From: Crambe crambe
Lineage: Eukaryota; Porifera; Demospongiae; Poecilosclerida; Crambeidae
Length of the DNA: 64,000 nucleotides
Assembly (NCBI GenBank): GCA_963924555.1
Contig: OZ004584.1
Location: 8,625,753-8,689,752 of the forward strand
Direction of reading: 5' to 3'
Shown: piece by piece, positions 1-52,571 of the stretch
How the letters are laid out: the number at the start of each line of letters is the position of its first letter
How positions within the stretch are numbered: position 1 is the stretch's first letter
The notes under the pieces: model-generated
The model's database searches: none
The model's input: the letters and a program-made list of their open reading frames with translations, nothing else
Told to the model about the DNA's origin: nothing
Program-made: the position numbers and the translations under genes

Positions 1-597
1 AATAGAATCCTAATTAATACACAAATTAAACCTCTCAAAATAGTTGATCCCCACCCCAAAAAGAGGCAATATCCAGGTCTCACCTCTGCAGTGCAGGTTC
101 ATTCTGATACTTCTTCTTGATGTCACTAATGTCAGTGGCAGTCAGTCCCAGAGGAACAGAGAGCTTCACCTCCCAGTCCAGTGAGTGGTCCGCTATCTCA
201 TTCAGGTCCCTGTCAACTCCTCCATGGTCCAAGTCCAACTGCCACTCCAAGAGGGGGCGTGCATTCATTGGGAGACGTGAGAGGTAGGATTGGTAATCTG
301 GTCCTGTGGCATGTAGTTACAGTGTAGAGTGGATCCATGGAGGACAATGGGACTCACACTAACCTGAGGGGAGAACTGGGTCAGGTCCATTCACACCACT
401 TCCATCTCCAGTCATGGGTTACAGTAGTACAATGTGAACTAAAGTCATGCACATTGCATATATTAAGGGACATTAATACACTACTCTATATAATACACAC
501 CATACCATACCATATGCACACTTCAGGGCAAGTTACTTGCTACAATTTACTTACCTTTCCAAACCAAACCAAATGCTGACTTTGCATTTTCACTGGT

Positions 598-2867
598 TTA
601 GTCCACAACGCACAAGTGGTCTCTTCCAGGGTGAGAGAGACATTCAAAGGAGAGTTGGTAGCTCACAGAAAAGGCGTAGTTCATGCGAGAGGTGACTGTC
701 TTCAGTGTACGCTCAATGATCTCTCGGATGGCACTACACACCTCGTGTGTTGGGGTCTTGGTGATCGGTAGTCTCTTGATGGATACCTCGTAGTACTTTG
801 GTTGGGAGATGAGGGTGATGGTGTCGTAATCAGTTCCAAATCGAAACTGCACTCGGTTCTTCTTGATGCCTTCTTCAATCAACTTGAGTTTGAGTGAGTT
901 CTGCCCGACTAAGTTGGCAATGGTGGCAGGAAAGACCCCAAGGGGTACAAAACCACATTCGTATCGAATCAAGAGAGAGGCAGGAAGGAGTAGGTCGGAA
1001 TCATTATTTCGAAAGTCACTCAGTTCTTCACTGCTCACATTCTCAAGGATGCAGGGCATCAGGTAGACCTTTGAACTCTGTGAAGGGTCGGACTGGACTA
1101 TGGGAGCTATGATGTTGAGGTGCTCCAGCAGCTTCACCAGTTGGAGTAAGGGAATGTGATCTTTCTTGATGGCCGCCAAAGAATCTTGCAACTCTTTCAC
1201 TTCAAAGTACTTGATGTCTTCAGCACGTTCTCTAGGACTTTTTCCTTTTGTCCAGATATGACGATACTTGAAAAGTGCTGCTGCTATGTCTTTGAAGGGG
1301 ATGAAGTCCAAACGTTCGTCTCTTGTTTCTTGCTCCTTTAAAGCTTCCTTCACATCTTCAAATGAAAACTGTCCAGTTTTCCGGAATTTTTCCCGAGCTG
1401 CCCTCTTCACTTTGCCGAATTTGAAAGTGTTGACAATCATGTTGGTCACACTGTCGAATACGATTTGTACGTCACAAATGACAGTGTCTTCCAGCTCAGG
1501 AACGTCAGGGAAGTACATCAAGACTCCAGCGTAGTGGTGCAGGAACCACAAGGCCACTTTAGTTTCCTTTGGGGACATGCCAAACTGCCAAGCTAGTTCC
1601 ATGCAGTACTCCAGGCTCAGCATTCTCACCACTTGTTTGCGAAGACAGAGACTGAACACGAGCCAAGCTGCTGGAATGGGGATCTTCTTGAAGTGGTGCC
1701 GAATGTGATCCTGAAGGAATTTGCGAATGGAATCCACCTCTTCCTTACCTCCTGTCTTGTTGTCGACTGCAAGGACTAACTGATCCTCCTCGGCAAACTC
1801 GACGAGACCTTCTTTATAGAAGCTAGTATTCGTGATGGTACTTTTCAGCTCATCATCAAATTTCTTGATCTCTTCTTTGTTCACCTTGTCTTTGTGAGTA
1901 GCAACTATGAATGCTACTGAATTGGATGATGGCTGAACCAACTTGGCTGCTGGATTGAGGTCAGAGATGTCTTCACCTAAAGTGTTATCAGGACTAGAGC
2001 GACAGCAAGCAACGGCAGACAGGGCTTGGAGTATCATCTCCTCCACGGTGTACGTCGATTCCACCGGTATGGTGGACTCACCTGTCGATGGATCCAGGTA
2101 CGATATGCTATAGCGACTCTTGAGATCGTCGATGAGTTTGCAGAAGATCAGGTACAGGGAAGGACCCATTACGAGAGCTGGTAGCATGTCCATGAACTCT
2201 GGCTGACCTCCAGTGTCTTCCATCTTGATGAGAGCAGTGTATTTGAGTGTATACTTGATCACCTCCCAATCCTTGGAAGCCATTGCCTTCGTCAACATGT
2301 CGTTCATGTCGAATGCAAAGTTGATATCGGCTGGACCGTTATAAGCTGATTCTTTCTGCTGGGGCTCCACCTCTACTGGTGGCTCTGACTCCTCTGCATC
2401 TTCCACAGGGGTGTTTGGTTGAGTAGAGCCGGCACTTGTGGTTGCAGAATCGGACCGAGACTGGGTCTCCATTGCCTGAGGTGGTGAGCCCTCTGGCGTG
2501 ATTAAGAGTGATCTATCCACTGATGGTTCAGATGCTACAACGGAATTTGTTTCATAGAAGAACTGGAGGAGCATGCGTGCTTCGTCTGAAAGACCTTGGA
2601 GAGATGACCAATTCTCTGCAGATATCACAGCAGTACTGCTAGAGAGACTTCTAATGATGACTTGTCTGGATTCGACCGTTCCCGTGCTAGGCTGCTCTGC
2701 CTCTCTAGCTGAGCTGATGTCTACGATCTCTCCCGTCAGGCGGCGACGCATCGAAGTCTTTCCCAAACGAGGAGCACCAACAAAGAGGAACTTGAGGAAA
2801 TACATGTCTAAAGACCCTCGTGTGGCAAGAATCTGTCGGTAGGCAGCAATGTAACCTCCAGTGGGAC
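598..2867 (-). pseudogene. Gene A ROC-COR exon, class I, 3' truncated
   Basis: Starts at acceptor TTTGTCAG. It shows the GTPase motifs GAPRLGKT (P-loop), MEDTGGQPE (G3) and ATHKDKV (G4), then a COR region with IPAAWLVFSLCLRK and YECGFVPLGVFP. It carries the class I block missing from B, C and E (RDERLDFIPFKDIAAAL through KYFEVKELQDSL). The end is damaged: the reading frame stops at 598 after CVVD, whereas genes C and D continue about 27 codons to the donor. The QHLVWFGK coding bases survive downstream in another frame. Confidence 0.7.
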
Positions 2868-3432
2868 CTGACAAATAGAAAATAGTCATCATTAATATTA
2901 ATATGTCCATCACATGCTCCTGACCCTTAGCAACCTTGATTGATTCAGAGGAAGTGGGCAAAACAAAGTGGTCTATTTAGGATATGAATTATCAGCTACT
3001 CACCAGAGAGGTAGTCCTAAATCTGCACACTCAGTTCTTTCAGCTCAAGTTTTTTCAATATACTGAACAATGACGTCCAGGTTGGAGGAAGACGACTCTT
3101 TCCTGGAGATTCCCATTGGCTGATCACAATTTCAACAGCTTGAGTAGGATCAGACACAAGATGATGCTCCAAAGTGATCCCAGCAGCTTGTATCAGTTCA
3201 GTGTGGACCTTTGCCAGTGATGTGACCACCTGGATTCCTACTCCCTCCAGTCTAGAGAGAGCACTCATGCTGAATTGACTCTCGGGGTTGAATGGGGTCA
3301 CTGGGAATGGGATAAATTACAAATCAGTTAAATTGGGACCTCCAGAGTATTTAAGAATTGACCATTTTTATCTTGTGATACTATTACATCATCATGATAT
3401 AATCAATTATTTGGGCAAAATTCAGTAGTCAC

Positions 3433-4336
3433 CTTTCAATGATGCCTTGAACACCCTGTTACTATATCCAGATGCACCCCATCCCCCTAACACCACCAAT
3501 TCTCCTGTGGGGAGGACAATAGTAGAAGTTCTACTTAACTTTTTAGACAAATTCCCCACATGTAACCAGGAGAGGGTGTGGGGGGAGTAGGCACAGATCT
3601 CAGAGAAATAGGCATGATTATTTTTAAGATATCCTCCAGTAGATATCAGCTGATTTGCAAATGATGAAGGAGAGGAAAGTTCTAGATGAGTCTGTAACTC
3701 ACTCCACAAATCACTGGAGTGCGACATTTCTTGAGTATAGTAATCATTAAGGAGTGACTCCAACTTGCAGTGAAATACTGAGGGACCCTGTTCCAAGCCA
3801 CCCATCAAATACAGTCTTCCTTTATGGAGAGTGGATTTCAAACGACTGCATGCTTTAGGTAGAGGTTGAACAGACGACCACTCATTGTCTTTGAGTATCT
3901 CCACTACATTCACTTCATCCCTTCCACTATCTGCACCACCTGATACCACCAAACATTCGGGACTTCCAGTGTTCAATGCTGATGAATAATAACGACTAGT
4001 TGGCATTGGTGGCAGTGATGGTTGCCAGTTCGTTTCTCCTTTAAGTGTCCATAGTTTATTTGTAGCCATATCAGTATCAGGTTCCCTTCCACCAACAAGC
4101 ACCACCTGAGAGTGGTAGGTGGTGAGGCCATAATAACGGGTGGGTGTGGTCACTTGTGACCATGAGTTCAAATCAGTGGAGGAGATAAACAGTGAGGCAT
4201 CACTTTCCCATGATGATGTGTACCCTCCTATATATATCTTGTCCTGTAGTAGCACACATTGGGCACCATGCATACCCACTGGTAGTGGAGTGCACTCTGC
4301 CCAGTCAAGTGAGGCTAGGGGGTGGAGGATGTCAAC
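3433..4336 (-). CDS. Gene A Kelch propeller exon (6 blades)
   Basis: Open reading exon of about 301 codons from acceptor CTCTACAG to donor GTGACT. Six Kelch blades are marked by the double-glycine strands KIYIGG, VVLVGG, LVVSGG, LYLMGG, LISTGG and VVLGG. Copy-specific tips are HG before blade 1, YTSSWESD after it, REPDTDMA after blade 2, ADSGRDE after blade 3 and an unusually long YLKNNHAYF after blade 5. It is still open although the gene downstream is broken. Confidence 0.8.
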
Positions 4337-6854: not shown

Positions 6855-6933
6855 CTTCCTCTGTCCCTCCATCAGATTCTTCCTCGATCTTTCATTATAA
6901 CTCCAGATTGCTTCTTTCCCATCAACCAAATAT

Positions 6934-9536: not shown

Positions 9537-12500
9537 TCATCTTAATTCCTCACATTTCCTCAACACTTCACAGATAACCTCAGCAGACTGAGTGTGTCCA
9601 GCCTTCACACACACTTCTAGCAAGTTCCCATAGGTGGCTGCAAGGCCACGCCTCTCCTTCCACCTCTTCAGTGCCTCTCGTCTATTGGTCAAACAGATCA
9701 GTGATTCACATTGGACTCTCAGTTAGAGGGGGAGATTTGTCCTCATGCAAGGGGAGGGGGAGGGGAGAGACGTTAAATGGTATCCTTATTTCTCAGGTGA
9801 AAATTTAATGTTTGTTGGCATCTATCTGAGATATCTCTTCCCCCACCATAATAACCACTTCCATGAGAACACTCACCTCTGCAGTTGAGGTTCATTCTGA
9901 TGCATGGTCTTGATGTCACTAATGTCAGTGGCAGTCAGTCCCAGAGGAACAGAGAGCTTCTCCTCCCAGTCCAGTGAGTGGTCCGCTATCTCATTCAGGT
10001 CCCTGTCCACTCCCCCATGGCCCCAGTCTAACTGCCGCTCCAAGTGGGGGCGTGCATCCACTGGGAGACGTGAGAGGTAGGATTGGTAATCTGGTCCTGT
10101 GGCATGTAGTTACAGTGTAGAGTGGATCCATGGAGGACAATGGGACTCACACTAACCTGAGGGGAGTACTGGGTCAGGTCCATTCACACCACTTCCATCT
10201 CCAGTCATGGGCTACAGTAGTACAATGAGATGAATAAGTGATACAATATGATCAACCCCTTACCTCTCCAAACCACACTAAGTGCTTCTCCTTCATTTCC
10301 ACAGGCTGAGGATCTTTCATGTCCAATAGACAGTGCATTAGGTGAGGAAAAGTCTCCCCACTCTTCACAATGCACAGATGGTCCATCTCAGGGTGAGTGG
10401 GACACTTGAAGGACACGTTGTGTTCCATGCAAGAAGCATAGTTTGTTCTTGAGATGACCGTTTGAAGAGAAGACTCTACGATCTTTCGTACTTTGACACA
10501 AACCTCATGCAGTGGGGTCTTAGCACTCGAAAGTCGAGTGATTCGTACCTCGTAGTATTTAGGTCGGGAAATGAGGGTGACCACATCAGCATCACATTCA
10601 TAACGAAACTGGACTCGATTCTTCTTGATTCCTCGTTGGATCAAGGTAAGTGAGCTGTGACCGACGAGGTTGGCTGTTGCAGCTGGGAAGATGCCAAGTG
10701 GTACAAAACCACACTTGTATCGGATCAGGACAGAAGCTGACAAGAGAGGGTTTGAGTCATGTCCTAGGAATGTGTCCAGTTCTTTACTTGTTGCATTCTG
10801 AAGGACACAAGGCATTAGATAAGTGACCTCTGAACTCTTGTTAGACGAGGTCTGAGAAGAATTGCTGGGATGGGACTGAGTAATGGAAGCTATGATGTTG
10901 AGGTGTTCCAGCAGCTTCACCAGTTGCTCCAGGGGTATGTAGTCTCCTGAAACACCATCGAGACTTCTTCTGATGTTCTCCAGGGAGAACTGTCCCGTTT
11001 CCTTGAATCTCTCAGAGGCAGCTATGCCCATTCGACCGAACTTAAATGCATTGATGATCAGATTGGTCACGCTATCGAAAACAATTTGAATGTTACAAAT
11101 GACTGTTTCCTTTAACTCAGGTAGGTTGGGGAAGTACATCAGGACTCCGGCATGGTGGTGGAGGAACCACAGAGCTGTCTTTGTATCAGCAGCTGTCATG
11201 CCAAGCCTCTCAGCAAGTTGCAGGCAACTCTGCAGACTGGCTATTCTCTTGTCCCTCTTTCGCAGGCAGAGACTCAGCATCAGCCATGCAGCTGGGATGC
11301 GAAGCTTCTTGAAGTGCTTCTGCAAACCTTTCTCCAGAAAGGTACGAATATCTCTGACTTCATCTGCTCCCCCTGTCATGTTGTCTATGGGGAGTACCAT
11401 CCTGCCTTCTGAGGAGAACTGGACCAGATCGTCCCTGAAGAAATCGGTAGATCGAATCGTATGTTGTAATTTTTGATCTAATTTGTCGATCTCCTCTTCA
11501 GACACTTTATCTTTATGTGTCCCGATTATGTATGCAACAGATTTGGAAGAAGAAGCTAAAAGCTCGTCCAATTTGGAATCAGAGGCTCCTTCGTTACTCT
11601 CTTGTGAGCTGTACGACTTGAAGCAAGCAATACTGGCTAGAACTGAGAGAAGGACTTCTTCCACAGTATAGGTGGACTTGACCGGCAAGGTGGACTCACC
11701 CGATGGACTGACGAAGGAGATAGTGTAACTTTTCTTGAGGTCATCAATCAACTTACAAAATAAAAGGTAAAGGCCAGGACCGATGGTGAGTGCTGGGAGC
11801 ATGTCCATCAGCTCGGGATGACCCCCTGTGTCTTCCATGTTAAGTAGTGCTGCGTCTTTGAAGAGCTGCTTCATATGACTCCATTTTTTGGCACTCATGG
11901 CATTACGGAACAAGTCAGCCATTTCATCCACGTCAGAGAGTAGAGTACCGCTACCTCTAGGTCTTACCATTGGTGGAGCAGGGTCGGATAAAAGTTCAAA
12001 CTTTATCTCAGAAGTAGGTACCTCTGGTGACTTAAGATTGGTGTTAGAAAGCTTGGTCCTATGTACTTCTTGAGTAGAAGGTGTTCCATCATGAATGGTG
12101 GACCCATCACTCACACTTTCTTCATTGGAGTTGATGCTGGACGTTTTCTGTTCAAAAATCTGCTGATAGAAGTACTGCAGGAACATGTGTGCCTCATCTG
12201 TGAGGTTTTCAGCTGCTAACCAATCTGTTCGTGTCACCATGGCTGCAGTGCAGGAGAGGTTCCTGATGATCACTCGTCCTGACTCAACTGCACCCGTACT
12301 AGGCTGCTCTGGCTCTCCAGCTGAAGCGATGTCTGTGATCTCTCCAGTCAGGCGGCGTCGGGTCGTTGTCTTTCCCAAACGAGGACCTCCAACGAAAGCC
12401 ATTTTGACGAAGAGCATTTCTATGGATTCTTGTGTGGCAAGAATTCGGCGGTATGCATTCAGATATTCAGATTTGCCTGAGAGGATAAGAGAGTTCAGTT

Positions 12501-15500
12501 TCTAACAAAGACTCAAACATAGTAGCTATTCCAAAAAGACTAAATTTTTTTGAGGATGGTGTATAAGCTACCACATAAAGATAGGATATTGTCTCCCCCA
12601 CGACTTTTCTAGATGAAGGTCTGGGAGTTGGATGATACCTACACAATACACCTTTGTGTGAAATCTCTACTCACCAGTGAGGTAGTCCTCAATCTGCACA
12701 CTCAGTTCTTTCAGTTCAAGTTTCTTCAATACATCGAACAGTGACGTCCAGGTTGGAGGAAGACGACTCTTTCCTGGAGATTCCCACTGGTTGATAACAA
12801 CTTCAACAGCTTTAGCACGATCAGACGGAAGTTGATGCCGGACAGTCTCATTCAAAGTAATTCCAACTGCTCTTATCAATTCAGTGTGGACCTTTGCCAG
12901 TGACGTGACCACCTGGATTCCTACTCCCTCCAGTCTAGAGAGAGCACTCATGCTGAATTGACTCTCGGGGTTGAATGGGGTCACTGGGAATGGGATAAAT
13001 CACAAAGCAGTTAAATTGGGACCTCCAGAGTATTTAAGAATTGTTGGGATGGACCATTTTGATCTTGTGATACTATTACATCATCATGACATAATCAATT
13101 ATTTGGGCAGAATTCAGTAGTCACCTTTCAATGATGCCTTGAACACCCTGTTACTGTTACTCCATTCAGATGCACTCGCTCCCCCTAACACCACCAATTC
13201 TCCTGTGGGGAGGACAATAGTAGTAGTGTCATACAACTTTATAGGCAAATCCCCCACGTGTAACCAGGAGAGGGTGTGGGGGGAGTAGGCACAGATCTCA
13301 GAGGAATAGTCACCACTAAGCCCTCCTCCAGTAGATATCAGCTGATTTGCAAATGATGAAGGAGAGGAAAATTTGAGACGAATTTGTAACTCACTCCACA
13401 AACCAATGGAGTATGACATTTCTCGAGTATAGTCTTTATTAAGGAGTGACTCCAACTTGCAGTGAAATACTGAGGGACCCTGTCCCAAGCCACCCATCAA
13501 ATACAGTCTTCCTTTATGGAGAGTGGATTTCAAACCACAGCATGCTTTAGGTAGAGGTTGAGCAGATGACCACTCATTGTCTTTGAGTATCTCCACTACA
13601 TTCACTTCCTTTCCACTTACTCTACCACCTGATACCACCAAACATTCGGGACTTCCAGTGTTCAATGCTGATGAATAATAACGACTAGTTGGCATTGGTG
13701 GCAGTGATGGTTGCCAGTTCGTTCCTCCTTTAAGTGTCCATAGTTCATTTGTAGTCATATCAGTATCATGTTCCATTCCACCAACAAGTACCACCTGAGA
13801 GTGGTAGGTGGTGAGGCCATAAAGACGGGTGGGTGTGGTCACTTGTGACCATGAGTTCAAATCAGTGGAGGAGATAAATAGTGAGGCATTACTTTTCAAT
13901 GATGATGTGTTCCCTCCTCCTAAATATATCTTGTCCTGCAGTAGCACACATTGGGCATCACACATACCCACTGGTAGTGGAGTGCACTCTGCCCAGTCAA
14001 GTGAGGCTAGGGGGTGGAGGATGTCAACCTGTAGAGGTATGGTAGAGAATAGTTACCTTGTACACATGCACAACAGGAGGTCGTCTTTGACATAATGGAA
14101 GGACAGAATAGAGGGCCTGTACATGGAGGTGTGTCACATAAAAATGGTGTGGTTGTCTGCCATCTTGATCTTTGTGTATTAAATGACCTCTGAATAAAGG
14201 TCACCTCTCTATAAAGGACAATTTCAACTTGTCTGTTATTTGGAGACTCCACTGTATGTTGGAGGTACAAGGTAGAGGAGAAATTGTACTAGTTTACATG
14301 TTAGGAGGTGGTTAAGTGTTTGTTTTCATAATTATTGCAACTAGTTGATTGTAAGAACTTATAATGCTGTTAGTTATCCTGTTCTTTGCAAGGGAGAAAA
14401 CAAGTTTATAGCAATAGCAGTGTACTTTCATCATCTTAGATCCACCCCTCTAGTCATAGGTGTAGTGCTGGGTCAGGCAGGTCAGATCGATATAAGCCAA
14501 CACATCTTTCACATCCTGATGGTCTTGTATGGTCCATTAATGTGGTTTACATTACTTCCAGATTCTCCATACCACTCAGGTTACAGGTATTATGGGGGAG
14601 AGCCTGACTAGCGAGACTATTTGCCTGACCAATGCACAAAATACTGCTATACCTCTGATAGTGTGTGACAGTTTTATGAATGGCACATTAATGTGGTATG
14701 AGAGGAATAAAGGAGGATAGCACAACTGATGGAGAGATAAGTTCATGGTGGACAACCATGCCCCCTTACAAGCAATCATTCAAGCATAGCCTGGCAAGTT
14801 GTCAGAAGAAAGAGCAGAGGCTACGGTTTTGATAATGGCATTACTAGTAATTCCTCTTTGGTGGATCTTTCACAAGAATTGTCGCCATCTATGTGACACG
14901 CCCCCTGCTCCTCGTGCAGGTTCTCCATTCTTCATGTACTGTGTGTGACACACACCTAAACACTGAGATGGCAAATTTTTAACCCTTGAGACAGACACTA
15001 GCACAAGTAGGTGACAGGCTTAGGTAAACTGAGCTTACTGAGAGCTTAGTCTTGGGTACGAGGCTAACTGAGAGCTCTGCTAATAAATGAAGTAATGCCT
15101 CTTGCTGTTTATATCTGTTGTCAGCTTTAGCAAGGGTCAAGGGTCACATTCCTTGGATTGTAGTGCCACCAGATCAAACCAGGACTTACTTTATTCTATC
15201 TGAAGCCCACCCTTTATCAGCTGTGGATGGACCTTCAGTTGAAGTCTACCCTTGAAAAAGTGTTAGTGAGAATAGGGAAGTGTTCAGTGGTGTTGAGGAG
15301 AGACTTGTGATTGATGTGCATTTGACCAGCATGTGAAGTTTGTAGTGGTACAAGATGAAGCTGCTACAAATGTTACAGGAACTGCTACAAACATTCAAGA
15401 TGGTTTCTCAGAGGATTGAATTTACCAGAAAGCTTGAAATTGACAGCCACTTATTATCTCATTGTTGTAGGAGAGTCTATTGTGGACTAGTGAGATATAT

Positions 15501-21951: not shown

Positions 21952-22241
21952 CTAACGTTGGAGAGTGAGGACCAACTGTTCATGTCCAAGGTCTTCCAGG
22001 ACCTCTCTGATAGTGGCCCAGGTGGGAGGAGGTTGCTCTCTGGACAGCCACACTTTAAACATGGCCTTCATGCATTGGAAAGAGGAGGGGCCATGACAGG
22101 ACTCCACCTCTTCAAGTTCCTCCTCCTGCAGGTCCAGGAACAACCCCACGTCCCTCCACTCGTCACTGATCCCTCGCAATTTCTTGCACAGGTCTCTCAG
22201 ACTGGGTCGTTCCTCCGGGTAATTAGTGGGTGTGGTCAAGC
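21952..22241 (-). CDS. Alternative death-domain exon downstream of gene C
   Basis: 97 codons from acceptor CCATCCAG to TAG. The segment RPSLRDLCKKLRGISDEWRD then LFLDLQEEELEEVE, MKAMFKVWLSRE, PPTWATIREVLEDLGHEQL is a clear six-helix death domain. Entry is phase 1, matching the linker exon 22324-22458. No stop or frameshift is seen, so this is a usable alternative C-terminus for gene C. In gene B the corresponding place lacks this exon. Confidence 0.55.
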
Positions 22242-36100: not shown

Positions 36101-39100
36101 TGGTTCAGATGCTACAACGGAGTTTGTTTCAAAGAAGAACTGGAGGAGCATGCGTGCTTCGTCTGAAAGACCTTGGAGAGATGACCAATTCTCTGCAGAT
36201 ATCACAGCAGTACTGCTAGAGAGACTTCTAATGATGACTTGTCTGGATTCGACCGTTCCCGTGCTAGGCTGCTCTGTCTCTCCAGCTGAGCTGATGTCTG
36301 CTATCTCTCCCGTCAGGCGGCGACGCATCGAAGTCTTTCCCAAACGAGGAGCACCAACAAAGAGGAACTTGAGGAAATACATGTCTAAAGACCCTCGTGT
36401 GGCAAGAATCTGTCGGTAGGCAGCAATGTAACCTCCAGTGGGACCTGACCAATAGAAAATAGTCATCATTAATATTAATATGTCCATCACATGGTAGGAC
36501 CTCCCGACCCTTAGCAACCTTGATTGATTCAGAGGAAGTGGGCAGACCACAGTGGTCTATTTTGGACATAAATTATCAGCCATGCTCCACTCACCAGAGA
36601 GATAGTCCTCAATCTGCACACTCAGTTCTTTCAGCTCAAGTATTTTCAATATACCAAACAATGATGTCCAGGTTGGAGGAAGACGACTCTTTCCTGGAGA
36701 TTTCCATTGGCTGATCACAATTTCAACAGCTTGAGCAGGATCAGACACAAGACGATGCTCCAAAGTGATCCCAGCAGCTTGTATCAGTTTAGTGTAGACC
36801 TTTGCCAGTGACGTGACCACCTGGATTCCTACTCCCTCCAGTCTAGAGAGAGCACTCATGCTGAATTGACTCTCGGGGTTGAATGGGGTCACTGGGAATG
36901 GGATAAATCACAAAGCAGTTAAATTGGGACCTCCAGAGTATTTAAGAATTGTTGGGATGGACCATTTTGATCTTATGATACTATTACATCATCATGACAT
37001 AATCAATTATTTGGACAGAATTCAGTAGTCACCTTTCAATGATGCCTTGAACACCCTGTTACTCCTTCCAGATGCACCCCATCCCCCTAACACCACCAAT
37101 TCTCCTGTGGGGAGGACAATAGTAGCAGTTGCAAATAACTCTATAGGCACATTCCCCACATGTAACCAGGAGAGGGTGTGGGGGGAGTAGGCACAGATCT
37201 CAGAGGAAAGGGCACTAATAAGACCTCCAGTAGATATCAGCTGATTTGCAAATGATGAAGGAAAGGAAAGTTCGGGACGAATCTGTAACTCACTCCACAA
37301 TCCACTGGAGTGCGACATTTCTTGAGTATGGTCTTCATTAAGGAGTGACTCCAACTTGCAGTGAAATACTGAGTGACCCTGTCTCCAGCCACCCATCAAA
37401 TACAGTCTTCCTTTATGGAGAGTGGATTTCAAATTACTGCATGCTTTAGGTAGAGGTTGAACAGACCACCACTCATTGTCTTTGAGTACCTCCACTACAT
37501 TCACTTCTTCCTCATTCTTCCTTACTCTACCACCTGATACCACCAAACATTCGGGACTTCCAGTGTTCAATGCTGATGAATAATAACGACAAATTGGCAT
37601 TGGTGGCAGTGATGGTTGCCAGTTCGTTCCTCCTTTAAGTGTCCATAGTTTATTTGTAGCCACATCAGTACCAGGTTCCATTCCACCAACAAGCACCACC
37701 TGAGAGTGGTAGGTGGTGAGGCCATAATAACGGGTGGGTGTGGTCACTTGTGACCATGAGTTCAAATCAGTGGAGGAGATAAACAGTGAGGCATTACTTT
37801 CCAGTGATGATGTGTCCCCTCCTATATATATATTGTCCTGCAGTAGCACACATTGGGCATCATCCATACCCACTGGTAGTGGAGCGCACTCTATCCAGTC
37901 AAGTGAGGCTAGGGGGTGGAGGATGTCAACCTGTAGAGGTATAGTAGAGAATAGTTACCTTGCACAACAGGGGGGTCATCTTTGACATAATGAAGGGACA
38001 GAATAGAGGGCCTGCACATGGAGGTGTGTCACATAAAAGGGGTGTGGTTGTCTGCCATCTTAGAGAGCAGAGAATGTATAGACTCATTGCAGTTTCAGTA
38101 ACATTATCAGACTTGTCTGTATATTACCAGCACACAACCACCATGTTGGAGGTAGTCTCCTGCCCCTTCTCCATGAGACTACAGTGGAACCTCCCAATAA
38201 TGGACACTCCAAATAAAGCACACCTCTCTGTAAAGGACACTTGTTGCTGTCTCACCATAGTACTTTGTGTATTAAATGACCTCTGAATAAAGGTCACCTC
38301 TCTATAAAGGACAATTTCAACTTGTCTGTTATTTGGAGACTCCACTGTATGTTGGAGGTACAAGGTAGAGGAGAAATTGTACTAGTTTACATGTTAGGAG
38401 GTGGTTAAGTGTTTGTTTTCATAATTATTGCAACTAGTTGATTGTAAGAACTTATAATGCTGTTAGTTATCCTGTTCTTTGCAAGGGAGAAAACAAGTCT
38501 ATAGCAATAGCAGTGTACTTTCATCATCTTAGACCCACCCCTCCATCTGTTTACAAGCCATGTGTACTTGTGTGGAAATTTATGAAGCTGGAGTATGAGA
38601 GGGATAAAGGTAAGTGTAGAGGATCCTGAGGCCCTCTCCCCCTTTTCTTCCTAAGGTAGGATTTGATAACTTGTGCTTTCGTATGCCTTCAAAATTGTAC
38701 AATCTCTAAGAGACATCTTTGAAGTGTCATGTGCATGGTCACAGATGTGATTGTTAAAGGAAATAACAGTTAGTATGCACTGAGTTATCTAATGTGTGAC
38801 ACTTGAAAGTTCACGGTGCAATGCACAGTGCAATACAGATGTGTCATGTATACTAGATAGGCTTTGGCACATTATGCTGGCATGATTTTGGGGTAGGTTC
38901 TAGCCTCATAATTATGATTAATAGGTAATGATATCTTCAATAGTACTCATGACTAGTTTTAAACATCAGTTATGTTCCAGTCCATCTAGGTTCTAGCATC
39001 ATGATCACTTCAATAGTACTCGTGACTGATCTTGATCTGGTCCAACTTAACATCCTAGATAAGTTACTTACCCTATACATGATTAACTGTGATGTCTAAT

Positions 39101-42100: not shown

Positions 42101-42654
42101 CAAATTTTTCTTTATGGACATGCAAGAAATCTGAATTTAAAAAGTGCAGGGAAGCAATGATGCTACAAGATGGAGTAAAAATGAATTTTAAAAAGGTTAT
42201 TTTTTATTTTGTAGAAATCTTGGCTACATTATCAATTCTTAGAGACAGAAATCAAGCTAGTGACTCATAATTCATACCTATGACTCATAATACCTTCCTG
42301 AGTATATCATGTAAGATCATGACTCCTATCTACAAGATGCAATATTTTTATTACTTTCTCCACACATTAGTTCTACATAACCTATTCCATCTCTGGAGCA
42401 ATTTTCAGCATTCTAAGATAGTCCATTCCAAGAAAAGAGTGACAATACCTAGCTGACTCATAATACCCACACCTACCCTATAGCTAGCCTATTATACCAC
42501 ACCCTCAAACACCCGACCCTTTGTCTGCCAATCAAGCTAACATGGTCCTCCAAAAAATCCCTATACACACACACACTAAACATCAAGTACATGTCAGATA
42601 CAACGTTGATTCCCCTGTAAATTAGCTACATGAGAAAACTCATACCTCTTCCAT
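33148..42654 (-). CDS. Gene D: Kelch-death-ROC-COR-death receptor-like protein (class I)
   Basis: Predicted exons: 42646-42654, 37033-37930, 36595-36891, 34079-36444, 33808-33862, 33675-33703, 33559-33613, 33222-33503, 33148-33164; sum 4008 bases, 1335 residues plus TGA, all GT-AG with matching phases. Kelch about 4-302, death domain to 401, ROC-COR to 1190, three linker exons (PLTDSSGEGTSGPIS; GTSPSSAGQH; VSGTEWKQVLEMIDDFEL), then a different death domain (AASWDTIATYLRLKTSAIEV, CLFDVITEWLKQ, PSWRQLAAGVRKLDG) and a short tail ATMNK. So D shares its first four modules with the other genes but has another effector domain. Intron 1 (4.7 kb) spans the satellite array. Head-to-head with GLUT copy 2. 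Confidence 0.75.
33222..33503 (-). CDS. Gene D C-terminal death-domain exon (distinct subtype)
   Basis: 94 codons, acceptor ATATAG, donor GTAAGG, phase 1-1. Six-helix death-domain pattern with W in helix 1 (ASWDTIATYL), W in helix 3-4 (ITEWLKQNY) and the PSWRQLAAGV helix 5 typical of the fold. It shares little sequence with the EIADHSLDWEEKL type used by B, C and E. A decayed copy lies at 21344-21625. Confidence 0.75.
34079..36444 (-). CDS. Gene D ROC-COR exon, class I
   Basis: 789 codons, the longest of the five. P-loop GAPRLGKT about 31 residues in, G3 MEDTGGQPE, G4 ATHKDKV, all intact. An acidic, Pro-rich insert (DAEESEPPVEVEPQQEES) lies between P-loop and G3. The class I block of about 48-50 residues (ERLDFIPFKDIAAALYEH, WTKGKSPRERAEDIKYFEV) lies before the shared IPLLQLVKLLEHLNIIAP. 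Ends HLVWFGK at donor GTAAGT. Confidence 0.85.
37033..37930 (-). CDS. Gene D Kelch propeller exon
   Basis: About 299 codons, six blades. Copy-specific tips: DD before and DTSSLES after blade 1, MEPGTDVA after blade 2, RVRKNEEE after blade 3, SN before and WRQGHS after blade 4, LISALS after blade 5, FATAT before and WGASGRSN after blade 6; ICRYYSS replaces TSRYYSS. Confidence 0.85.
38188..38347. mobile_element. Pogo-like MITE in intron 1 of gene D
   Basis: CAGTGGAACCTCC to GGAGACTCCACTG with TA on each side, the counterpart of 5008-5173 and of the copy in gene E. Approximate borders. Confidence 0.7.
38701..38815. repeat. Inverted, uninterrupted satellite monomer
   Basis: The reverse complement reads TTTCAAGTGTCACACATTAG, then AACTCAGTGCATACTAACTG, CACATCTGTGACCATGCA and TCAAAGATGTCTCTTAGAG, a full unit of the array that starts about 620 bases further on. 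It holds the empty site of the 324-bp element found at 5474-5797. Confidence 0.7.
39437..41692. repeat. 114-bp satellite array, about 19 full units
   Basis: Unit: CAAGGTCACACATTAGATAA, CTCAGTGCATACTAACTGTG, ATTTCCTTCATGAACACC, TGTGACCTTGCATGTGTC, ACTTTAAAGATATCTTTTGG, AGCACTGGCTTTCATTTT. Unit starts fall at 39547, 39661, 39775, 39890, 40004 and every 114 bases to 40802, then 40918, 41032, 41148, 41264, 41380, 41496, 41612. Units towards the right are 116 bases because of a TT insertion (GCACTTTGGC). The first unit (from about 39,440) is shorter and divergent, the last is cut at 41,692. Units are nearly identical, implying recent amplification. Inside intron 1 of gene D. Confidence 0.95.
41693..42645. 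other. Intron 1 of gene D between satellite and first exon
   Basis: AT-rich sequence without a supported gene. Part of it (42,480-42,640) resembles 30,500-30,730 of gene C's intron, again just upstream of the candidate first exon. Confidence 0.4.
42646..42654 (-). CDS. Candidate short first coding exon (M-E-E), gene D
   Basis: TCTGATGGAAGAG then donor GTATGAG. Adding these 9 bases to the downstream exons gives a continuous frame of 4008 bases. It faces GLUT copy 2 across about 150-200 bases. Confidence 0.35.
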
Positions 42655-45370: not shown

Positions 45371-48300
45371 TCATCTTAATTCCTCACATTTCTTCTTCAA
45401 CACTTCACAGATGGCATCAGCAGACTGAGTGTGTCCAGCCTTCACACACACCTCCAGCAAGTTCCCATAGGTGGCTGCAAGACCATGCCTCTCCTTCCAC
45501 CTCTTCAGTGCCTCTCGTCTATAGGTCAAAGAGATCAGTCATTCACACTGGACTCTCAGTTAGAGGGGGGATGACACATGAAACCATGAAAGCCATAAAA
45601 GCCAAAAAAAAAAAAGAAGTATCATTTCAAGTGTTTGACTTGAGGTCACACTAAGTACATGTGAAGTACAAAAACAAGACCACATTTTTTGGTTGGTGGG
45701 AGGGAATAAATAGAATCCTAATAAATTAACAAATTAAACCTCCTCTCAAAATAGTTGATCCCACCCCAAAAAGAGGCAATACCCAGGCCTCACCTCTGCA
45801 GTGCAGGTTCATTCTGATACTTCTTCTTGATGTCGCTAATGTCAGTGGCAGTCAGTCCCAGAGGAACAGAGAGCTTCTCCTCCCAGTCCAGTGAGTGGTC
45901 TGCTATCTCATTCAGGTCCCTGTCCACACCCTCATGGCCCCAGTCCAACTGCCACTCCAAGTGGGGGCGTGCAACCACTGGGAGACGCAAGAGGTAGGAT
46001 TGGTAATCTGGTCCTGTGGCATGTAGTTACAGTGTAGAGTGGATCCATGGAGGACAATGGGACTCACACTAACCTGAGGGGAGAACTGGGTCAGGTCCAT
46101 TCACACCACTTCCATCTCCAGTCATGGGCTACAGTAGTACAATGAGATGAATAAGTGATACAATATGATCAACCCCTTACCTCTCCAAACCACACTAAGT
46201 GCTTCTCCTTCATTTCCACAGGCTGAGGATCTTTCATGTCCAACAGACAGTGCATTAGGTGAGGAGAGGTCTCCCTGCTCTTCACGATGCACAGATGGTC
46301 CATCTCAGGGTGAGTGGGACACTTGAAGGACACGTTGTGCTCCATGCAGGAAGCATAGTTTGTTCTTGAGGTGACCGTTTGAAGAGAAGACTCTATGATC
46401 TTTCGTACTTCAACACAAACCTCGTGCAGTGGGGTTTTAGCACTCGAAAGTCGAGTGACTCGTACTTCGTAGTGTTTTGGTCGGGAGATGAGGGTGACCA
46501 CATCAGCATCACATCCATAACGAAACTGAACTCGATTCTTCTTGATTCCTCGTTGGATCAAGGTAAGTGAGCTGTGGCCGACAAGGTTGGCTGTTGCAGC
46601 TGGGAAGATGCCAAGTGGTACGAAACCACACTTGTATCGGATCAGGACAGAAACTGACAAGAGAGGGTTTGAGTCATGTCCTTGGAATGTATCCAGTTCT
46701 TCACTTGTTGCATTCTGAAGGACACAAGGCATCAGATAGGTCACCTCTGAACTCTTGGTAGACGAGGTCTGAAAAGAACTGCAGGGATGGGACTGAGTGA
46801 TGGGAGCTATGATGTTGAGGTGTTCCAGCAGCTTCACCAGTTGCTCCAGGGGTATGTAGTCTCCTGAAACACCAACGAGACTAATTCTGATGTCCTCCAG
46901 GGAGAACTGTCCCATTTCCTTGAATCTCTCAGAGGCAGCCACGCCCATTCGACCAAACTTAAATGCATTGATGATCAGATTGGTCACGCTATCGAAAACA
47001 ATTTGAATGTTACAAATGACTGTTTCCTTTAACTCAGGTAGGTTGTGGAAGTACATCAGGACTCCGGCATGGTGGTGGAGGAACCACAGAGCTGTCTTTG
47101 TATCAGCAGCTGTCATGCCAAGCCTCTCAGCAAGTTCCAGGCAACTCTGCAGACTGGCTATTCTCTTGTCCCTCTTTCGCAGGCAGAGACTCAGCATCAG
47201 CCATGCAGCTGGGATGCGAAGCTTCTTGAAGTGCTTCTGCAAACCTTTCTCCAGAAAGGTACGAATATCTCTGACTTCGTCTGCTCCCCCTGTCATGTTG
47301 TCTATGGGGAGTACCATCCTGCCTTCTGAGGAGAACTGGACCAGATCGTCCCTGAAGAAATCGGTAGATCGAATCGTATGTTGTAATTTTTGATCTAATT
47401 TGTCAATCTCCTCTTCAGACACTTTATCTTTATGTGTCCCGATTATGTATGCAACAGATTTGGAAGAAGAAGCTAAAAGCTCGTCCAATTTGGAATCAGA
47501 GGCTCCTTCGTTACTCTCTTGTGAGCTGTACGACTTGAAGCAAGCGATACTGGCTAGAACTGAGAGAAGGACTTCTTCCACAGTATAGGTGGACTTGACC
47601 GGCAAGGTGGACTCGCCTGATGGACTGAGGAAGGAGATAGTGTAACTTTTCTTGAGGTCATCAATCAACTTACAAAATAAAAGGTAAAGGCCAGGACCGA
47701 TGGTGAGTGCTGGGAGCATGTCCATCAGCTCGGGATGACCCCCTGTGTCTTCCATGTTAAGTAGTGCTGCGTCTTTGAAGAGCTGCTTCATATGACTCCA
47801 TTTTTTGGCACTCATGGCATTACGGAACAAGTCAGCCATTTCATCCACGTCAGAGAGTAGAGTACCACTACCTCTAGGTCTTACCATTGGTGGAGCAGGG
47901 TCGGATAAAAGTTCAAACTTTATCTCAGAAGTAGGTACCTCTGGTGACTTAAGATTGGTGTTGGAAAGCTTGGTCCTATGTACTTCTTGAGTAGAAGGTG
48001 TTCCATCATGAATGGTGGACCCATCACTCACACTTTCTTCATTGGAGTTGATGCTGGACGTTTTCTGTTCAAAAATCTGCTGATAGAAGTACTGCAGGAA
48101 CATGTGTGCCTCATCTGTGAGGTTTTCGGCTGCTAACCAATCTGTTCGTGTCACCATGGCTGCAGTGCAGGAGAGGTTCCTGATGATCACTCGTCCTGAC
48201 TCAACTGCACCCGTACTAGGCTGCTCTGACTCTCCAGCTGAAGCAATGTCTGTGATCTCTCCAGTCAGGCGGCGACGGGTCGTTGTCTTTCCCAAACGAG

Positions 48301-51300
48301 GACCTCCAACGAAAGCCATTTTGACAAAGAGCATTTCTATGGATTCTTGTGTGGCAAGAATTCGGCGGTACGCATTCAAATATTCAGATTTGCCTGAGAG
48401 GATAAGAGAGTTCAGTTTCTAACAAAGACTCAAACATAGTAGCTATTCCAAAAAGACTAAATTTTTTTGAGGATGGTGTATAAGCTACCACATAAAGATA
48501 GGATATTGTCTCCCCCACGACTTTTCTAGATGAAAGTCTGGGAATTGGATGATACCTACACAATACACCTTTGTGTGAAATCTCTACTCACCAGTGAGGT
48601 AGTCCTCAATCTGCACACTCAGTTCTTTCAGTTCAAGTTTCTTCAATACATCGAACAGTGACGTCCAGGTTGGAGGAAGACGACTTTTTCCTGGAGATTC
48701 CCACTGGTTGATAACAACTTCAACAGCTTTAGCACGATCAGACGGAAGTTGATGCCGGACAGTCTCATTCAAAGTAATTCCAACTGCTCTTATCAATTCA
48801 GTGTGGACCTTTGCCAGTGACGTGACCACCTGGATTCCTACTCCCTCCAGTCTAGAGAGAGCACTCATGCTGAATTGACTCTCGGGGTTGAATGGGGTCA
48901 CTGGGAATGGGATAAATCACAAAGCAGTTAAAATGGGACCTCCAGAGTATTTAAGAATTGTTGGGATGGACCATTTTCATCTTGTGATACTATTACATCA
49001 TCATGACATAATCAATTATTTGGGCAGAATTCAGTAGTCACCTTTCAATGATGCCTTGAACACCCTGCTACTCCTTCTAGATACTCTCCATCCCCCTAAC
49101 ACCATCAATTCTCCTGTGGGGAGGACAATAGTAGCAGTGCTACTTAACTCTATAGGCAAATTCCCCACGTGTAACCAGGAGAGGGTGTGGGGGGAGTAGG
49201 CACAGATCTCAGAGGAATAGTCACCACTAAGCCATCCTCCAGTAGATATCAGCTGATTTGCAAATGATGAAGGAGAGGAAAATTCGAGATGAATCTGTAA
49301 CTCACTCCACAAACCAATGGAGTGTGACATTTCTTGAGTATAGTCTTCATTAAGGAGTGACTCCAACTTGCAGTGAAATACTGAGGGACCCTGTCCCAAG
49401 CCACCCATCAAATACAGTCTTCCTTTATGGAGAGTAGATTTCAAACTACTGCATGCTTCAGGTAGAGGTTGAACAGACGACCACTCATTGTCTTTGAGTA
49501 TCTCCACTACATTCACAAGAGTCTCTCCACTATCTAAACCACCTGATACCACCAAACATTCGGGACTTCCAGTGTTCAATGTTGATGAATAATAACGACT
49601 AGTTGGCATTGGTGGCAGTGATGGTTGCCAGTTCGTTCCTCCTTTAAGTGTCCATAGTTTATTTGTAATCATATCAGTATCACGTTCCCTTCCACCAACA
49701 AGCACCACCTGAGAGTGGTAGGTGGTGAGGCCATAATAACTGGTGGGTGTGGTCACTTGTGACCATGAGTTCAAATCAGTGGAGGAGATAAACAGTGAGG
49801 CATTACTTTTCAGTGATGGTGTGTACCCTCCTACACACATCTTGTCCTGCAGTAGCACACATTGGGCTTCCCACATACCCACTGGTAGTGGAGTGCACTC
49901 TGCCCAGTCAAGTGAGGCTAGGGGGTGGAGGATGTCAACCTGTAGAGGTATAGTAGAGAATAGTTACATTGCACAACAGGGGGTCGTCTTTGACATAATG
50001 GAGGGACAGAATAGAGGGCCTGCACATGGAGGTGTGTCACATAAAAGGGGCATGTTGTCTGCCATCTTAGAGAGCAGAGAATGTATAGACTCATTGCAGT
50101 TTCAGTAACATTATTGGACTTGTCTGTATATTACCAGCACACCACCACCATGTTGGAGGTAGTCTCCTGCCCCTTCTCCATGAGACTACAGTGGAACCTC
50201 CCAATAATGGACACTCCAAATAAAGCACACCTCTCTGTAAAGGACACTTGTTGCTGTCCCACCATAGTACTTTGTGTATTAAATGACCTCTGAATAAAGG
50301 TCACCTCTCTATAAAGGACAATTTCAACTTGTCTGTTATTTGGAGACTCCACTGTATGTTGGAGGTACAAGGTAGAGGAGAAATTGTACTAGTTTACATG
50401 TTAGGAGGTGGTTAAGTGTTTGTTTTCATAATTATTGCAACTAGTTGATTGTAAGAACTTATAATGCTGTTAGTTATCCTGTTCTTTGCAAGGGAGAAAA
50501 CAAGCCTATAGCAATAGCAGTGTACTAGCTTTCATCATCTTAGACCCTAGCGTTGTCCCCAGGTTCTCGCACGCGCACGGAAGGGGGGAGGGGAAGAAAG
50601 AGAGCCTGGTACACACTGACTGCGCATGCTCAGGTTTTTCACAGAAATCTGTGAATTTTGTATTCTTCCGTAATTCTTCGGTTCATTCATGTACAAATGT
50701 GTAATATAAATGATGTCATTGATTCATAATGTCTACAATGGAGTGTCTAGTGTAGGGATTGTTGGCTGGATATACAGAACAAAGATTCCATCCTTCTTGT
50801 TTCCTTACTTTTTTGTGCAGTGGTCATCCCTACATCTTTTTTCATTTCACGAAATGCTTTTTCCCTTACTTGTTCCTGGTCTTTTTTCCCTCTCTTTTAT
50901 GGTTTTAACTATGTATAGAGTTCATTCTTCTATGTGTATGCAGGGACAGATGAAAGAAGAATAGTTCTCCAATAGCATACCAGCCCAATCACTATCAACG
51001 AGTCAAGGTGGAGGTAGAAGATGCTGAAATAGAGTCTACCTTGTTGAATCTAAATCCCCGAGTCGATACAGTAGTCTATCATCATCATCATCATTCTAGC
51101 TACATATACCTATACCTAGCTAGCTAGCTAGGCAGCTGAATAATATTATAATTTCGAATAATTGGATATCAAATACATGCGCATGCGTATTATAGAAAAG
51201 ATGGCTTCCTAATTGAATTAGTCGAGTGCTGTGCTCCTTAGTGTCTCCTTTTTCATCGACTCTTTCGAGGATCAACGAGTAGAAAAGATCGTAGTTCGTA

Positions 51301-52457
51301 GAATTTGGAGTGGATTTGTCCAGAAATCATAGCTGTAGCTTGAGTGGTTCGAGAGATATGGTTGTCTAAGAAGAATAATAATAAGAAGAATAATAGAGAA
51401 GAAGAAGAATATAGCGATTACCTGCTTGCCGTATTTCTGAAACGGTAAGCTCCCTGGTCCTGAAACTTGGTCTGCACATTGTAGTAGGCTCTAGTAGGCT
51501 GGATAATCATTCACAGTAGCTATTATTAGGTCTAAGTGGGGGAACTGGAATTTCACTTTTGTATTAGTCTATAGGCGGCGCGCGCGGCCGTCCGAGTCAT
51601 CCCTACATAGAGAGTGCTACTGCACTCTCTGATTGTTGTAGGAGAGTCTATTGTGGACTAGTGAAATATACAATGGGTCTATGTATTCATTCTAGTGCAG
51701 TCTTGGATCTTGTCAACTAGTCTGGCATCGGGATGCCCGAGTTTTCTCTCAAAAAAAATTGCAATAACATGTCTGTTGGATAATTTTCCAAAGCCAGTTG
51801 GTAGAATTGCAAACACATCGCCCTTGTAAATCACTGATACAACTTCCAGCTGTTCAGGCTTCAGGTCAGCTCTTTCTCCATAGAATTGTGAGTGTGTCTC
51901 GCCAACATTATACTACTTCATGTGACTGAATAGAGCAATCTGATTGGCATGCAACTATAGCTGCACGCGTGGGTGTTACAAGTAGTTGATGCTAGAGCCA
52001 CCAGACCATTTTCCTTCCCCCTCCCCCCAAAAAAGAAGAAAGCTGGGCTGGTGACACCAGACTACTTGTCCACCTCCCATCTGCCACTGTTTACCCATCT
52101 ATGTTCATGCAAAGTGGAATGTAATTTACTGCCCACACAAATCCAGGAAGTTAAGTTTGGATGGCCTCATCTAGTACAAGTCATACCTTCTCCATCAGAC
52201 TCTCAGTAGTGGAGTGCACTCTGCCCAGTCAAGTAAGGCAAGGGGGTGGAGCCTGTAGAAGTACAGCGAGAATAGTTATCTGGCTTGCACACATTCACAA
52301 CAGGGGGTCTTAGAAACTGCTTTATCAGGAGATCACAAACGCAAATTCCTCTGTAAAAAGACCTCGCAAGGTATCTTAGCTACATTGATCCATACTCTCC
52401 CTCTACCTGTCTCTAGCTAGTCTCATCAATATCACATACCTCCTCCCGATCTCTCAT
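45371..52457 (-). CDS. Gene E: Kelch-death-ROC-COR-death receptor-like protein (class II)
   Basis: Predicted exons: 52440-52457 (M-R-D-R-E-E), 49042-49939, 48592-48900, 46181-48393, 46074-46128, 45794-46013, 45371-45518; sum 3861 bases, 1286 residues plus TGA. Kelch about 7-305, first death domain to 408 (SALSRLEGVGIQVVTSLAKV, LFDVLKKLELKELSVQIEDY), ROC-COR to 1146, linker, C-terminal death domain to 1286. Nearly identical to gene B in death-domain and ROC-COR exons, but the Kelch tips differ. An alternative first exon is 52187-52195 (M-E-K). The first exon faces the intact GLUT gene across about 180 bases. In this copy the longer N-terminal extension seen in B is closed by a stop, which favours the MRDREE start. 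Confidence 0.75.
46181..48393 (-). CDS. Gene E ROC-COR exon, class II
   Basis: 738 codons with intact P-loop GGPRLGKT, G3 MEDTGGHPE, G4 GTHKDKV. Differs from gene B by only scattered substitutions (for example FHNLPEL for FPNLPEL, KHYEVRVTRL for KYYEVRITRL), which dates the B/E split as the most recent in the family. Confidence 0.85.
49042..49939 (-). CDS. Gene E Kelch propeller exon
   Basis: About 299 codons, six blades. Copy-specific tips: WE before and YTPSLKS after blade 1, RERDTDMI after blade 2, LDSGETL after blade 3, SS before blade 4, WLSGDYS after blade 5, SSTAT before and WRVSRRSS after blade 6. KMCVGG replaces KIYIGG in blade 1. Confidence 0.85.
50190..50355. mobile_element. Pogo-like MITE in intron 1 of gene E
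   Basis: Full copy from CAGTGGAACCTCC to GGAGACTCCACTG between TA dinucleotides, in the position of the copies of genes A and D. Confidence 0.7.
50550..51640. other. Unique segment in intron 1 of gene E, no gene seen
   Basis: Sequence not shared with the other introns, beginning near CCCTAGCGTTGTCCCCAGG and ending near a GC-rich GGCGGCGCGCGCGGCCG. It contains ATC and AAG/AAT microsatellite-like runs (51,080-51,410). Possibly an insertion; matching ends were not identified. Homology to the gene B intron resumes at about 51,640. Confidence 0.35.
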
Positions 52458-52571
52458 CAGGCCGGCCAGATCGATCACTCTTCCGATCTCTTCTTAGTCT
52501 CGTGACCAAATCTACCCCCGGCCCCGCCCCCTAGTTTGGTCGGGTAAAGGGTCGTCACCAACAAAGATAAC

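What the first reader, a model, noticed from the sequence alone, without database searches (positions are those of the whole stretch)
80..52460. Tandem family of Kelch-death-ROC-COR-death proteins: a candidate GTPase-based recognition receptor system
Seen: five head-to-tail copies with the same exon plan, four with fully open spliced frames of 1272-1335 codons. Known: ROC-COR proteins (LRRK, MFHAS1, Dictyostelium Roco families) are GTP-switched dimers usually carrying LRR, ankyrin or WD sensors; death domains drive assemblies in apoptosis and innate immunity. Inference: here a six-blade Kelch propeller replaces the LRR as sensor and two death domains flank the switch, a functional parallel to NLR receptors. 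I do not know of a described family with this exact order.
Basis: partly seen in the sequence, partly recalled or inferred. Interest (0 to 1): 0.92.

Follow-up and report, generated by a model that had tools for sequence, protein, structure and literature searches.

The report
Kelch-GTPase-death receptor gene array
A genome, probably of an animal, carries a long row of related genes that each join a binding propeller to a GTP switch and a cell-death signalling tail, and mainly the binding face of the propeller differs from gene to gene, as expected of recognition receptors.

Summary
The five head-to-tail copies are real; four have open GT-AG models of 1275-1350 codons, copy 1 is broken. They end a larger array: 26 ROC-COR exons in 284 kb, 24 with their own Kelch and D1 exons. 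COR homology and three G motifs are present (COR-A in 17 of 17 exons, window copies below Pfam's cut-off); the C-terminal death domain is clear (PF00531, 2e-10). The first 'death domain' (D1) is not recognised by Pfam; only its second half resembles one. Copy 4 ends in a different death domain; the array mixes three such modules and two ROC-COR classes with one Kelch type. Main new result: in 29 distinct Kelch exons the scaffold is nearly fixed, while DA and BC loops, the ligand face of Keap1/KLHL propellers, are hypervariable (dN/dS 1.6 and 2.3, against 0.7 in strands and 0.31 in ROC-COR), with signs of exchange between copies. This supports a recognition-receptor family with a GTPase switch and death-domain output; ligand, switching and signalling are inferred. 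ROCO candidate immune receptors are known in brown algae (LRR); my searches listed no Kelch-faced version.

The parts
601..2865 (-). copy 1 ROC-COR exon (class B), frame ends early: broken copy
   Evidence: alignment; (TAA inside at C6:8626350); COR-A 2.6e-5
3008..3301 (-). copy 1 D1 exon, one TAG inside
   Evidence: C6:8628760-8629053
3434..4336 (-). copy 1 Kelch exon
6855..6872 (-). copy 1 start exon MEGQRK
86..418 (-). copy 1 linker exon (364-418) and death exon D2a (86-301)
16096..16113 (-). copy 2 start exon MEGQEK, donor GTATG, phase 0
13125..14028 (-). copy 2 Kelch exon
   Evidence: Kelch PF24681 1.2e-20
12675..12983 (-). copy 2 D1 exon (death-like second half only)
10264..12476 (-). 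copy 2 ROC-COR exon (class A)
   Evidence: COR-A 1.2e-6
10157..10211 (-). copy 2 linker exon, 55 nt
9877..10096 (-). copy 2 death exon D2a
   Evidence: spliced D2 PF00531 1.9e-10
9537..9681 (-). copy 2 death exon D2b with stop
31302..31319 (-). copy 3 start exon MEGQEK
26536..27433 (-). copy 3 Kelch exon
26102..26398 (-). copy 3 D1 exon
23507..25698 (-). copy 3 ROC-COR exon (class A; its 3' end matches class B copies, a mosaic)
23041..23375 (-). copy 3 linker exon (23321-23375) and D2a (23041-23260)
22500..22647 (-). copy 3 D2b with stop
21952..22350 (-). extra death domain DD3 downstream of copy 3 (possible alternative C-terminus)
   Evidence: PF00531 1e-6
21345..21623 (-). DD4-type death exon downstream of copy 3, one TAG inside
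   Evidence: C6:8647097-8647375
42646..42654 (-). copy 4 start exon MEE
37033..37930 (-). copy 4 Kelch exon
36595..36891 (-). copy 4 D1 exon
34079..36444 (-). copy 4 ROC-COR exon (class B)
33075..33862 (-). copy 4 3' exons (33808-33862, 33675-33748, 33559-33613, 33222-33503, last from 33164): DD4-type death domain
   Evidence: PF00531 0.0031, below cut-off
52187..52195 (-). copy 5 start exon MEK
49042..49939 (-). copy 5 Kelch exon
   Evidence: model
48592..48900 (-). copy 5 D1 exon
46181..48393 (-). copy 5 ROC-COR exon (class A)
45794..46128 (-). copy 5 linker exon (46074-46128) and D2a (45794-46013)
   Evidence: spliced D2 PF00531 2.6e-11
45371..45518 (-). copy 5 D2b with stop

Best explanation
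A tandem family of recognition receptors, probably intracellular, built as Kelch propeller - D1 - ROC-COR GTPase - death domain. Shown here: the exon order recurs across the genome, the GTPase part is under purifying selection, each copy has its own DA/BC face on a near-constant propeller, and GTPase and death modules are combined differently in different copies. Inferred: the variable face binds diverse ligands (microbial, allogeneic or altered-self proteins); binding changes the GTP state or dimer of ROC-COR; this exposes or clusters the C-terminal death domains, which recruit death-fold adaptors, much as in NLR or DAPK-type signalling. Different C-terminal modules would couple one sensor type to different outputs.
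For: Array of 26 ROC-COR exons, 24 with own Kelch and D1; 24 of 26 ROC-COR and 24 of 24 Kelch matches of the array without a stop. Of 60 scored ROC-COR places genome-wide 44 have a Kelch exon and 41 Kelch and D1 upstream within 20 kb, also where only about half of the residues are identical. Kelch dN/dS: strands 0.73, AB loops 0.31, CD 0.94, DA 1.59 (bootstrap 1.28-2.02), BC 2.31 (1.94-3.15); 24 of the 30 most variable sites in DA/BC, which hold 36% of residues. Without columns near gaps 1.81 against 0.66; nonsynonymous/synonymous contrast Fisher 3.5e-8. DA and BC loops form the substrate face in Keap1 and KLHL20 (PMC4668279 and PMC6720452, passages). Kelch model matches KLHL12/Keap1/KLHL20 folds, E about 1e-11. 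ROC-COR 0.31 in 14 of 19 class-A copies. Exchange: ROC-COR classes A and B are not reflected in the Kelch tree; four-gamete bound 37. All 34 copies examined have at least one death exon within 6 kb downstream, in five combinations.
Against: No transcript, ligand, GTP or signalling data. ROC is below Pfam's cut-off and the P-loop to DTGG spacing is long; the ROC-COR structure prediction failed (pLDDT 29.7); the match to another ROC-COR of this genome has an hhalign probability of only 16. D1 is not a recognised death domain. The Kelch model is moderate (pLDDT 65.3), so loop borders in blades 4-6 are approximate; 2 of 298 rotations of the loop mask did as well or better. The four-gamete count assumes one change per site; recurrent change at hypervariable sites would inflate it. 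dN/dS pairs are not independent. One assembly says nothing on variation between individuals. Downstream death exons are placed by nearness, not by transcripts.
Confidence: 0.62

Rival explanations
1. Diversified Kelch adaptors for endogenous partners: the variable face follows a set of diverging host proteins (for example the many death-domain proteins of this genome), and the family tunes cell death or signalling without sensing non-self.
For: KLHL20 Kelch binds the DAPK1 death domain; the peptide touches all six DA and five of six BC loops (PMC6720452, passages). This genome is rich in death domains: 150 matches among the 150 scored of 965 candidates.
Against: dN/dS above 1 at the same loop positions of every blade looks more like an arms race than tracking of fixed host partners; the D1 exon of the same genes is at 0.55.
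Confidence: 0.2
2. Self/non-self (allorecognition) receptors: the array encodes polymorphic compatibility sensors rather than pathogen sensors.
For: Same pattern as fungal nwd incompatibility genes: positive selection at propeller-face positions plus exchange between family members (PMC4986451, passages).
Against: No population data. The start exon is 3-6 residues long, so no signal peptide is read in the models; transmembrane segments were not sought.
Confidence: 0.12
3. Mostly inert tandem duplicates: copies made by transposons and unequal crossing-over, with no function.
For: Copy 1 is broken; some places carry stops; repeats abound.
Against: ROC-COR dN/dS 0.31, no 40-residue window above 0.72; Kelch scaffold conserved while faces vary; 24 of 26 ROC-COR matches of the array without a stop.
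Confidence: 0.04
4. Kelch, ROC-COR and death exons belong to neighbouring separate genes.
For: Each is its own exon; no transcripts were available; at 16 of 60 places no related Kelch exon lies within 20 kb upstream.
Against: Matching splice phases and GT-AG junctions in four copies; same order and strand at 41 of 60 places, including diverged ones; the start exon found lies before Kelch.
Confidence: 0.04

Closest known systems
Brown-algal LRR-ROCO candidate immune receptors (Teng 2024, PMC11378527; Zambounis 2012 as cited there)
   Same: ROC-COR GTPase behind a repeat sensor; expanded family; diversifying selection on the presumed ligand face; exon-level exchange (abstract and passages seen)
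   Different: There LRR, here a six-blade Kelch; there single repeats are shuffled as exons, here the whole propeller is one exon; here death domains follow COR
DAPK1 (death-associated protein kinase 1)
   Same: ROC-COR followed by a C-terminal death domain (PMC6320773, passages)
   Different: DAPK1 has kinase and ankyrin repeats in front (same passages) and no Kelch
Fungal NACHT-WD40 receptors (nwd family, HET-D/HET-R)
   Same: Propeller sensor with positive selection at face positions and exchange between family members, linked to an NTPase (PMC4986451, passages)
   Different: NACHT, not ROC-COR; WD40 blades nearly alike; fungal
AP-GTPase conflict systems and sponge death/TRADD-N expansions (PMC8195603)
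   Same: AP-GTPase plus COR fused to a repeat sensor and a variable effector end; large death-domain families in Amphimedon (section 10 and passages seen)
   Different: The passages seen name no Kelch-AP-GTPase-death family ('kelch' occurs 0 times in the main text); TRADD-N only at E 0.055-0.059 here
Keap1/KLHL Kelch domains
   Same: Fold and DA/BC ligand face
   Different: No BTB/BACK among the window exons scanned; here the face is hypervariable among paralogues

Membership tests
ROCO (ROC-COR) proteins | ROC GTPase motifs (P-loop, DxGGQ-like, THKD) | tested here: met
   GxPRLGKT, DTGGxPE, THKDKV in all five copies (the motif meaning is recalled); patterns found in 34, 37 and 37 of 37 exons (L034, L037, L068 lack the P-loop pattern)
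ROCO (ROC-COR) proteins | ROC domain by profile | tested here: inconclusive
   Pfam Roc E 0.04 and 0.079 in copies 1 and 4 only; 2 of 17 exons, best 0.035; below cut-off
ROCO (ROC-COR) proteins | COR domain behind ROC | tested here: met
   COR-A in 17 of 17 exons, best 8.5e-8, but window copies at 24.6-28.9 bits under the 35.3 cut-off; collinear 257-column match to an LRR-ROC-type protein of this genome, score 36 against at most 25.3 in 8 shuffles, probability 16
Death-domain proteins | PF00531 death domain | tested here: met
   C-terminal D2 of copies 2 and 5, 1.9e-10 and 2.6e-11, over cut-off; DD3 1e-6 over cut-off; copy 4 DD4 0.0031 under it
Death-domain proteins | second, N-terminal death domain (D1) | tested here: inconclusive
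   0 Pfam families in 3 of 3 copies; half-domain match to DD3 only
Kelch propeller proteins | six Kelch blades | tested here: met
   Pfam Kelch families; AF2 model (pLDDT 65.3) with six four-strand groups and Foldseek hits to KLHL12, Keap1, KLHL20
NLR receptors | NACHT or NB-ARC STAND ATPase | tested here: not met
   no NACHT/NB-ARC hit in the exons scanned; it may work like an NLR but is not one
Immune recognition receptors (function) | ligand binding, induced expression, death or inflammatory output | not testable with these tools
   no RNA, protein or challenge data
KLHL (BTB-Kelch) E3 adaptors | BTB and BACK domains | tested here: not met
   none among the window exons scanned

The most novel reading that the evidence does not exclude
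A class of animal recognition receptor not described before: a gene array that keeps one Kelch scaffold nearly constant and diversifies its whole DA/BC face by selection and exchange between copies, wired through two interchangeable ROC-COR classes to three interchangeable death-domain tails, so that sensor, switch and output are assorted independently along a chromosome.
Probability: 0.5. Interest if true: 0.92.

Novelty: new variant of a known kind. Interest (0 to 1): 0.82.

Why it matters
If true, ROC-COR GTPases, the core of the Parkinson kinase LRRK2 and of DAPK1, serve in an animal as the switch of a diversified receptor repertoire, as proposed for brown algae. It would give a Kelch counterpart to LRR receptors, with a natural set of at least 29 propeller faces whose ligands can be sought, and a testable model of how ROC-COR passes ligand binding on to death domains.

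Tried and rejected
ROC-COR structure from the five window copies failed (pLDDT 29.7) and was not searched. Sequence search of ROC-COR profiles against solved structures gave nothing at E<=0.01 and two chance-level rows at E<=10. TRADD-N in ROC-COR (E 0.055-0.059) was treated as chance. A start codon inside the Kelch exon was rejected because the first Met is not conserved; a conserved ATG just upstream (MADN...) runs into a stop. The minus-strand ORF at 16.7-17.1 kb lies opposite the presumed start of a sugar transporter and is not taken as a receptor exon. D1 as a full death domain was not supported. My first loop classes were chosen after seeing the variability; the reported test uses loops taken from the structure model. 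I did not print which 2 of 298 rotations matched; they may be one-residue shifts. Left out before counts: one Kelch place with a stop (C6:3203438) and four distant Kelch exons (L064-L067) from the variability set; 5 of 19 class-A ROC-COR exons (L017, L024, L025, L026, L027); I entered 51 of 127 Kelch matches, all 50 D1 and 40 of 135 D2a matches, 33 of 135 D2a, 21 of 150 DD4 and 5 of 147 DD3 matches (the weaker rows were left out).
Full report
Observation. The window is C6:8625753-8689752 of a 143 Mb assembly in 119 contigs. Five copies lie head to tail on the minus strand. Kelch exons score well against Pfam Kelch families (for example PF24681, 1.2e-20, copy 2); the five ROC-COR exons match COR-A at 1.2e-6 to 2.6e-5, below the curated cut-off. 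All five carry P-loop, DTGG and THKD motifs. Four copies give exon models with GT-AG junctions and matching phases, 1269-1347 aa, plus a start exon of 3 or 6 codons. The start-exon pattern with its donor, up to 3 mismatches, is found 21 times in the genome, all on C6 minus strand, 20 of them inside the array, and 0 times read backwards. Copy 1 has a TAG in D1 and a shortened ROC-COR frame.

Extent. The ROC-COR exon of copy 2 finds 60 scored places (of 480 candidates, so a lower bound). Twenty-six lie in one array, C6:8.390-8.674 Mb; 24 of these have their own Kelch and D1 exons, two do not. Over the 60 places, 44 have a Kelch exon within 20 kb upstream on the same strand, 43 a D1, 41 both, 30 a D2a exon within 3 kb downstream, 28 all three (only the 51 best of 127 Kelch and 40 of 135 D2a matches were entered, and the 20 kb rule can borrow a neighbour's exon, as it did for the two). 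Places on C1, C2, C3, C5 and C12 keep the order at about 40-80% identity, so the gene unit is old. In the array 24 of 26 ROC-COR and 24 of 24 Kelch matches contain no stop.

Kelch face. I aligned 30 Kelch exons (5 of the window, 25 fetched; 29 distinct). The scaffold is almost fixed; single positions in every blade carry up to 11 amino acids. Loops were taken from an AlphaFold2 model (pLDDT 65.3, pTM 0.70) that matches KLHL12, Keap1, KLHL20 and LZTR1 (E about 1e-11). Pairwise dN/dS: strands 0.73, AB 0.31, CD 0.94, DA 1.59, BC 2.31; bootstrap over copies 0.61-0.86, 1.28-2.02 and 1.94-3.15 for strands, DA and BC; 24 of the 30 most variable sites are in DA/BC, the other six are residues 23, 24, 36, 39, 84 and 91; 2 of 298 rotations of the loop mask reach the observed contrast. 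With all columns near gaps removed the contrast stays (1.81 against 0.66). In loops codon positions 1 and 2 vary more than position 3 (loop classes there were chosen by eye). DA and BC loops form the substrate face in Keap1 and KLHL20; the DAPK1 peptide touches all six DA and five of six BC loops (PMC4668279, PMC6720452, passages). Other parts differ: ROC-COR of 14 of 19 class-A copies has dN/dS 0.31 with no 40-residue window above 0.72; D1 of the 15 copies found by pattern 0.55.

Combination of modules. ROC-COR exons fall in two classes about 54% identical; class B groups with a locus on C3 (support 100), yet Kelch exons of both classes are mixed, with the copy-2 Kelch beside a class-B Kelch (support 98) and the C3 Kelch far outside (23 places, quick trees). 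The four-gamete bound is 37 among 88 biallelic Kelch sites; recurrent change would inflate it. Copy 3 is itself a mosaic: its ROC-COR 3' end is closer to copies 1 and 4, the rest to copies 2 and 5. At the 3' end three death modules occur (D2, DD3, DD4). All 34 copies examined (26 of the array, 8 others; the remaining 26 of the 60 places were not examined) have at least one within 6 kb downstream: D2+D4 12, D2 10, D4 only 7, D2+D3 3, all three 2. Both ROC-COR classes occur with several sets. Whether the more distant exons belong to the same transcript is unknown.

Domains. D2 is a clear death domain, DD3 too (1e-6), DD4 is weak (0.0031, under cut-off). D1 has no Pfam match; a profile of 25 D1 sequences matches the second half of DD3 (probability 87.6), not D2 (0.9), DD4 (2.2) or a genome death profile (3.9). 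I therefore write Kelch - D1 - ROC-COR - death.

Mechanism. Best reading: a recognition receptor whose Kelch face is diversified, with ROC-COR as GTP-dependent dimer switch (knowledge of ROCO proteins, recalled) and death domains as output. Shown: exon order, selection, face variability, recombination of modules. Inferred: ligands, switching, signalling. Rivals are endogenous-partner adaptors and allorecognition; inert copies and separate genes fit poorly.

Known work. ROCO candidate immune receptors with diversifying selection on the LRR face are described in brown algae (PMC11378527; abstract and passages), WD40-faced NLRs in fungi (PMC4986451; passages), AP-GTPase conflict systems and sponge death-domain expansions (PMC8195603; section 10 and passages). 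A review names Kelch motifs among the flanks of ROCO proteins (PMC6320773; passages). In two sponges exposed to microbial patterns, Kelch-motif genes went down and death-domain genes changed (PMC6208332; passages); whether these are relatives is unknown. My searches listed no Kelch-ROC-COR-death family and no hypervariable Kelch receptor; they cover only the open-licence library, and most listed papers were seen as listings. Hence: new variant of a known kind. The species and phylum were not identified.

Noticed in passing
window 16908-19703, 42769-44591, 52628-55297 (+): Sugar transporter (PF00083, SLC2A/GLUT-like) genes on the plus strand lie between receptor copies, head to head with the start exons of copies 2, 4 and 5; the middle one looks degenerate.
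   Followed up: partly
window 20634-20819 and 44752-44913 (+): Duplicated dynamitin (PF04912) fragments; 0.0098 in the first, 9.2e-11 in the second.
   Followed up: no
window 39454-41691: 114-bp tandem repeat, about 19.5 copies, 98% matches, inside intron 1 of copy 4.
   Followed up: no
window 55951-62450 (-): GRIP domain ORF (4.5e-10) next to a 2025-codon ORF: perhaps a golgin-like coiled-coil gene.
   Followed up: no
window 7048-7401 (-): 118-codon ORF upstream of copy 1 that looks death-domain-like by eye but has no significant Pfam match.
   Followed up: partly
window about 52220-52260 and 16120-16160 (-): A copy of the beginning of the Kelch exon sits just before the start exon of copies 5 and 2.
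   Followed up: no
G000 C12:0.71-0.81 Mb and C13:2.19-2.45 Mb: Other clusters of Kelch domains in long open frames (about 30% identical); a death-domain match lies inside the C12 cluster: perhaps further Kelch receptor arrays.
   Followed up: no
G000 C18, C9, C8, C1, C6 (16 of 60 places): ROC-COR exons of this family with no related Kelch exon within 20 kb upstream: the switch may be used with other sensors.
   Followed up: no
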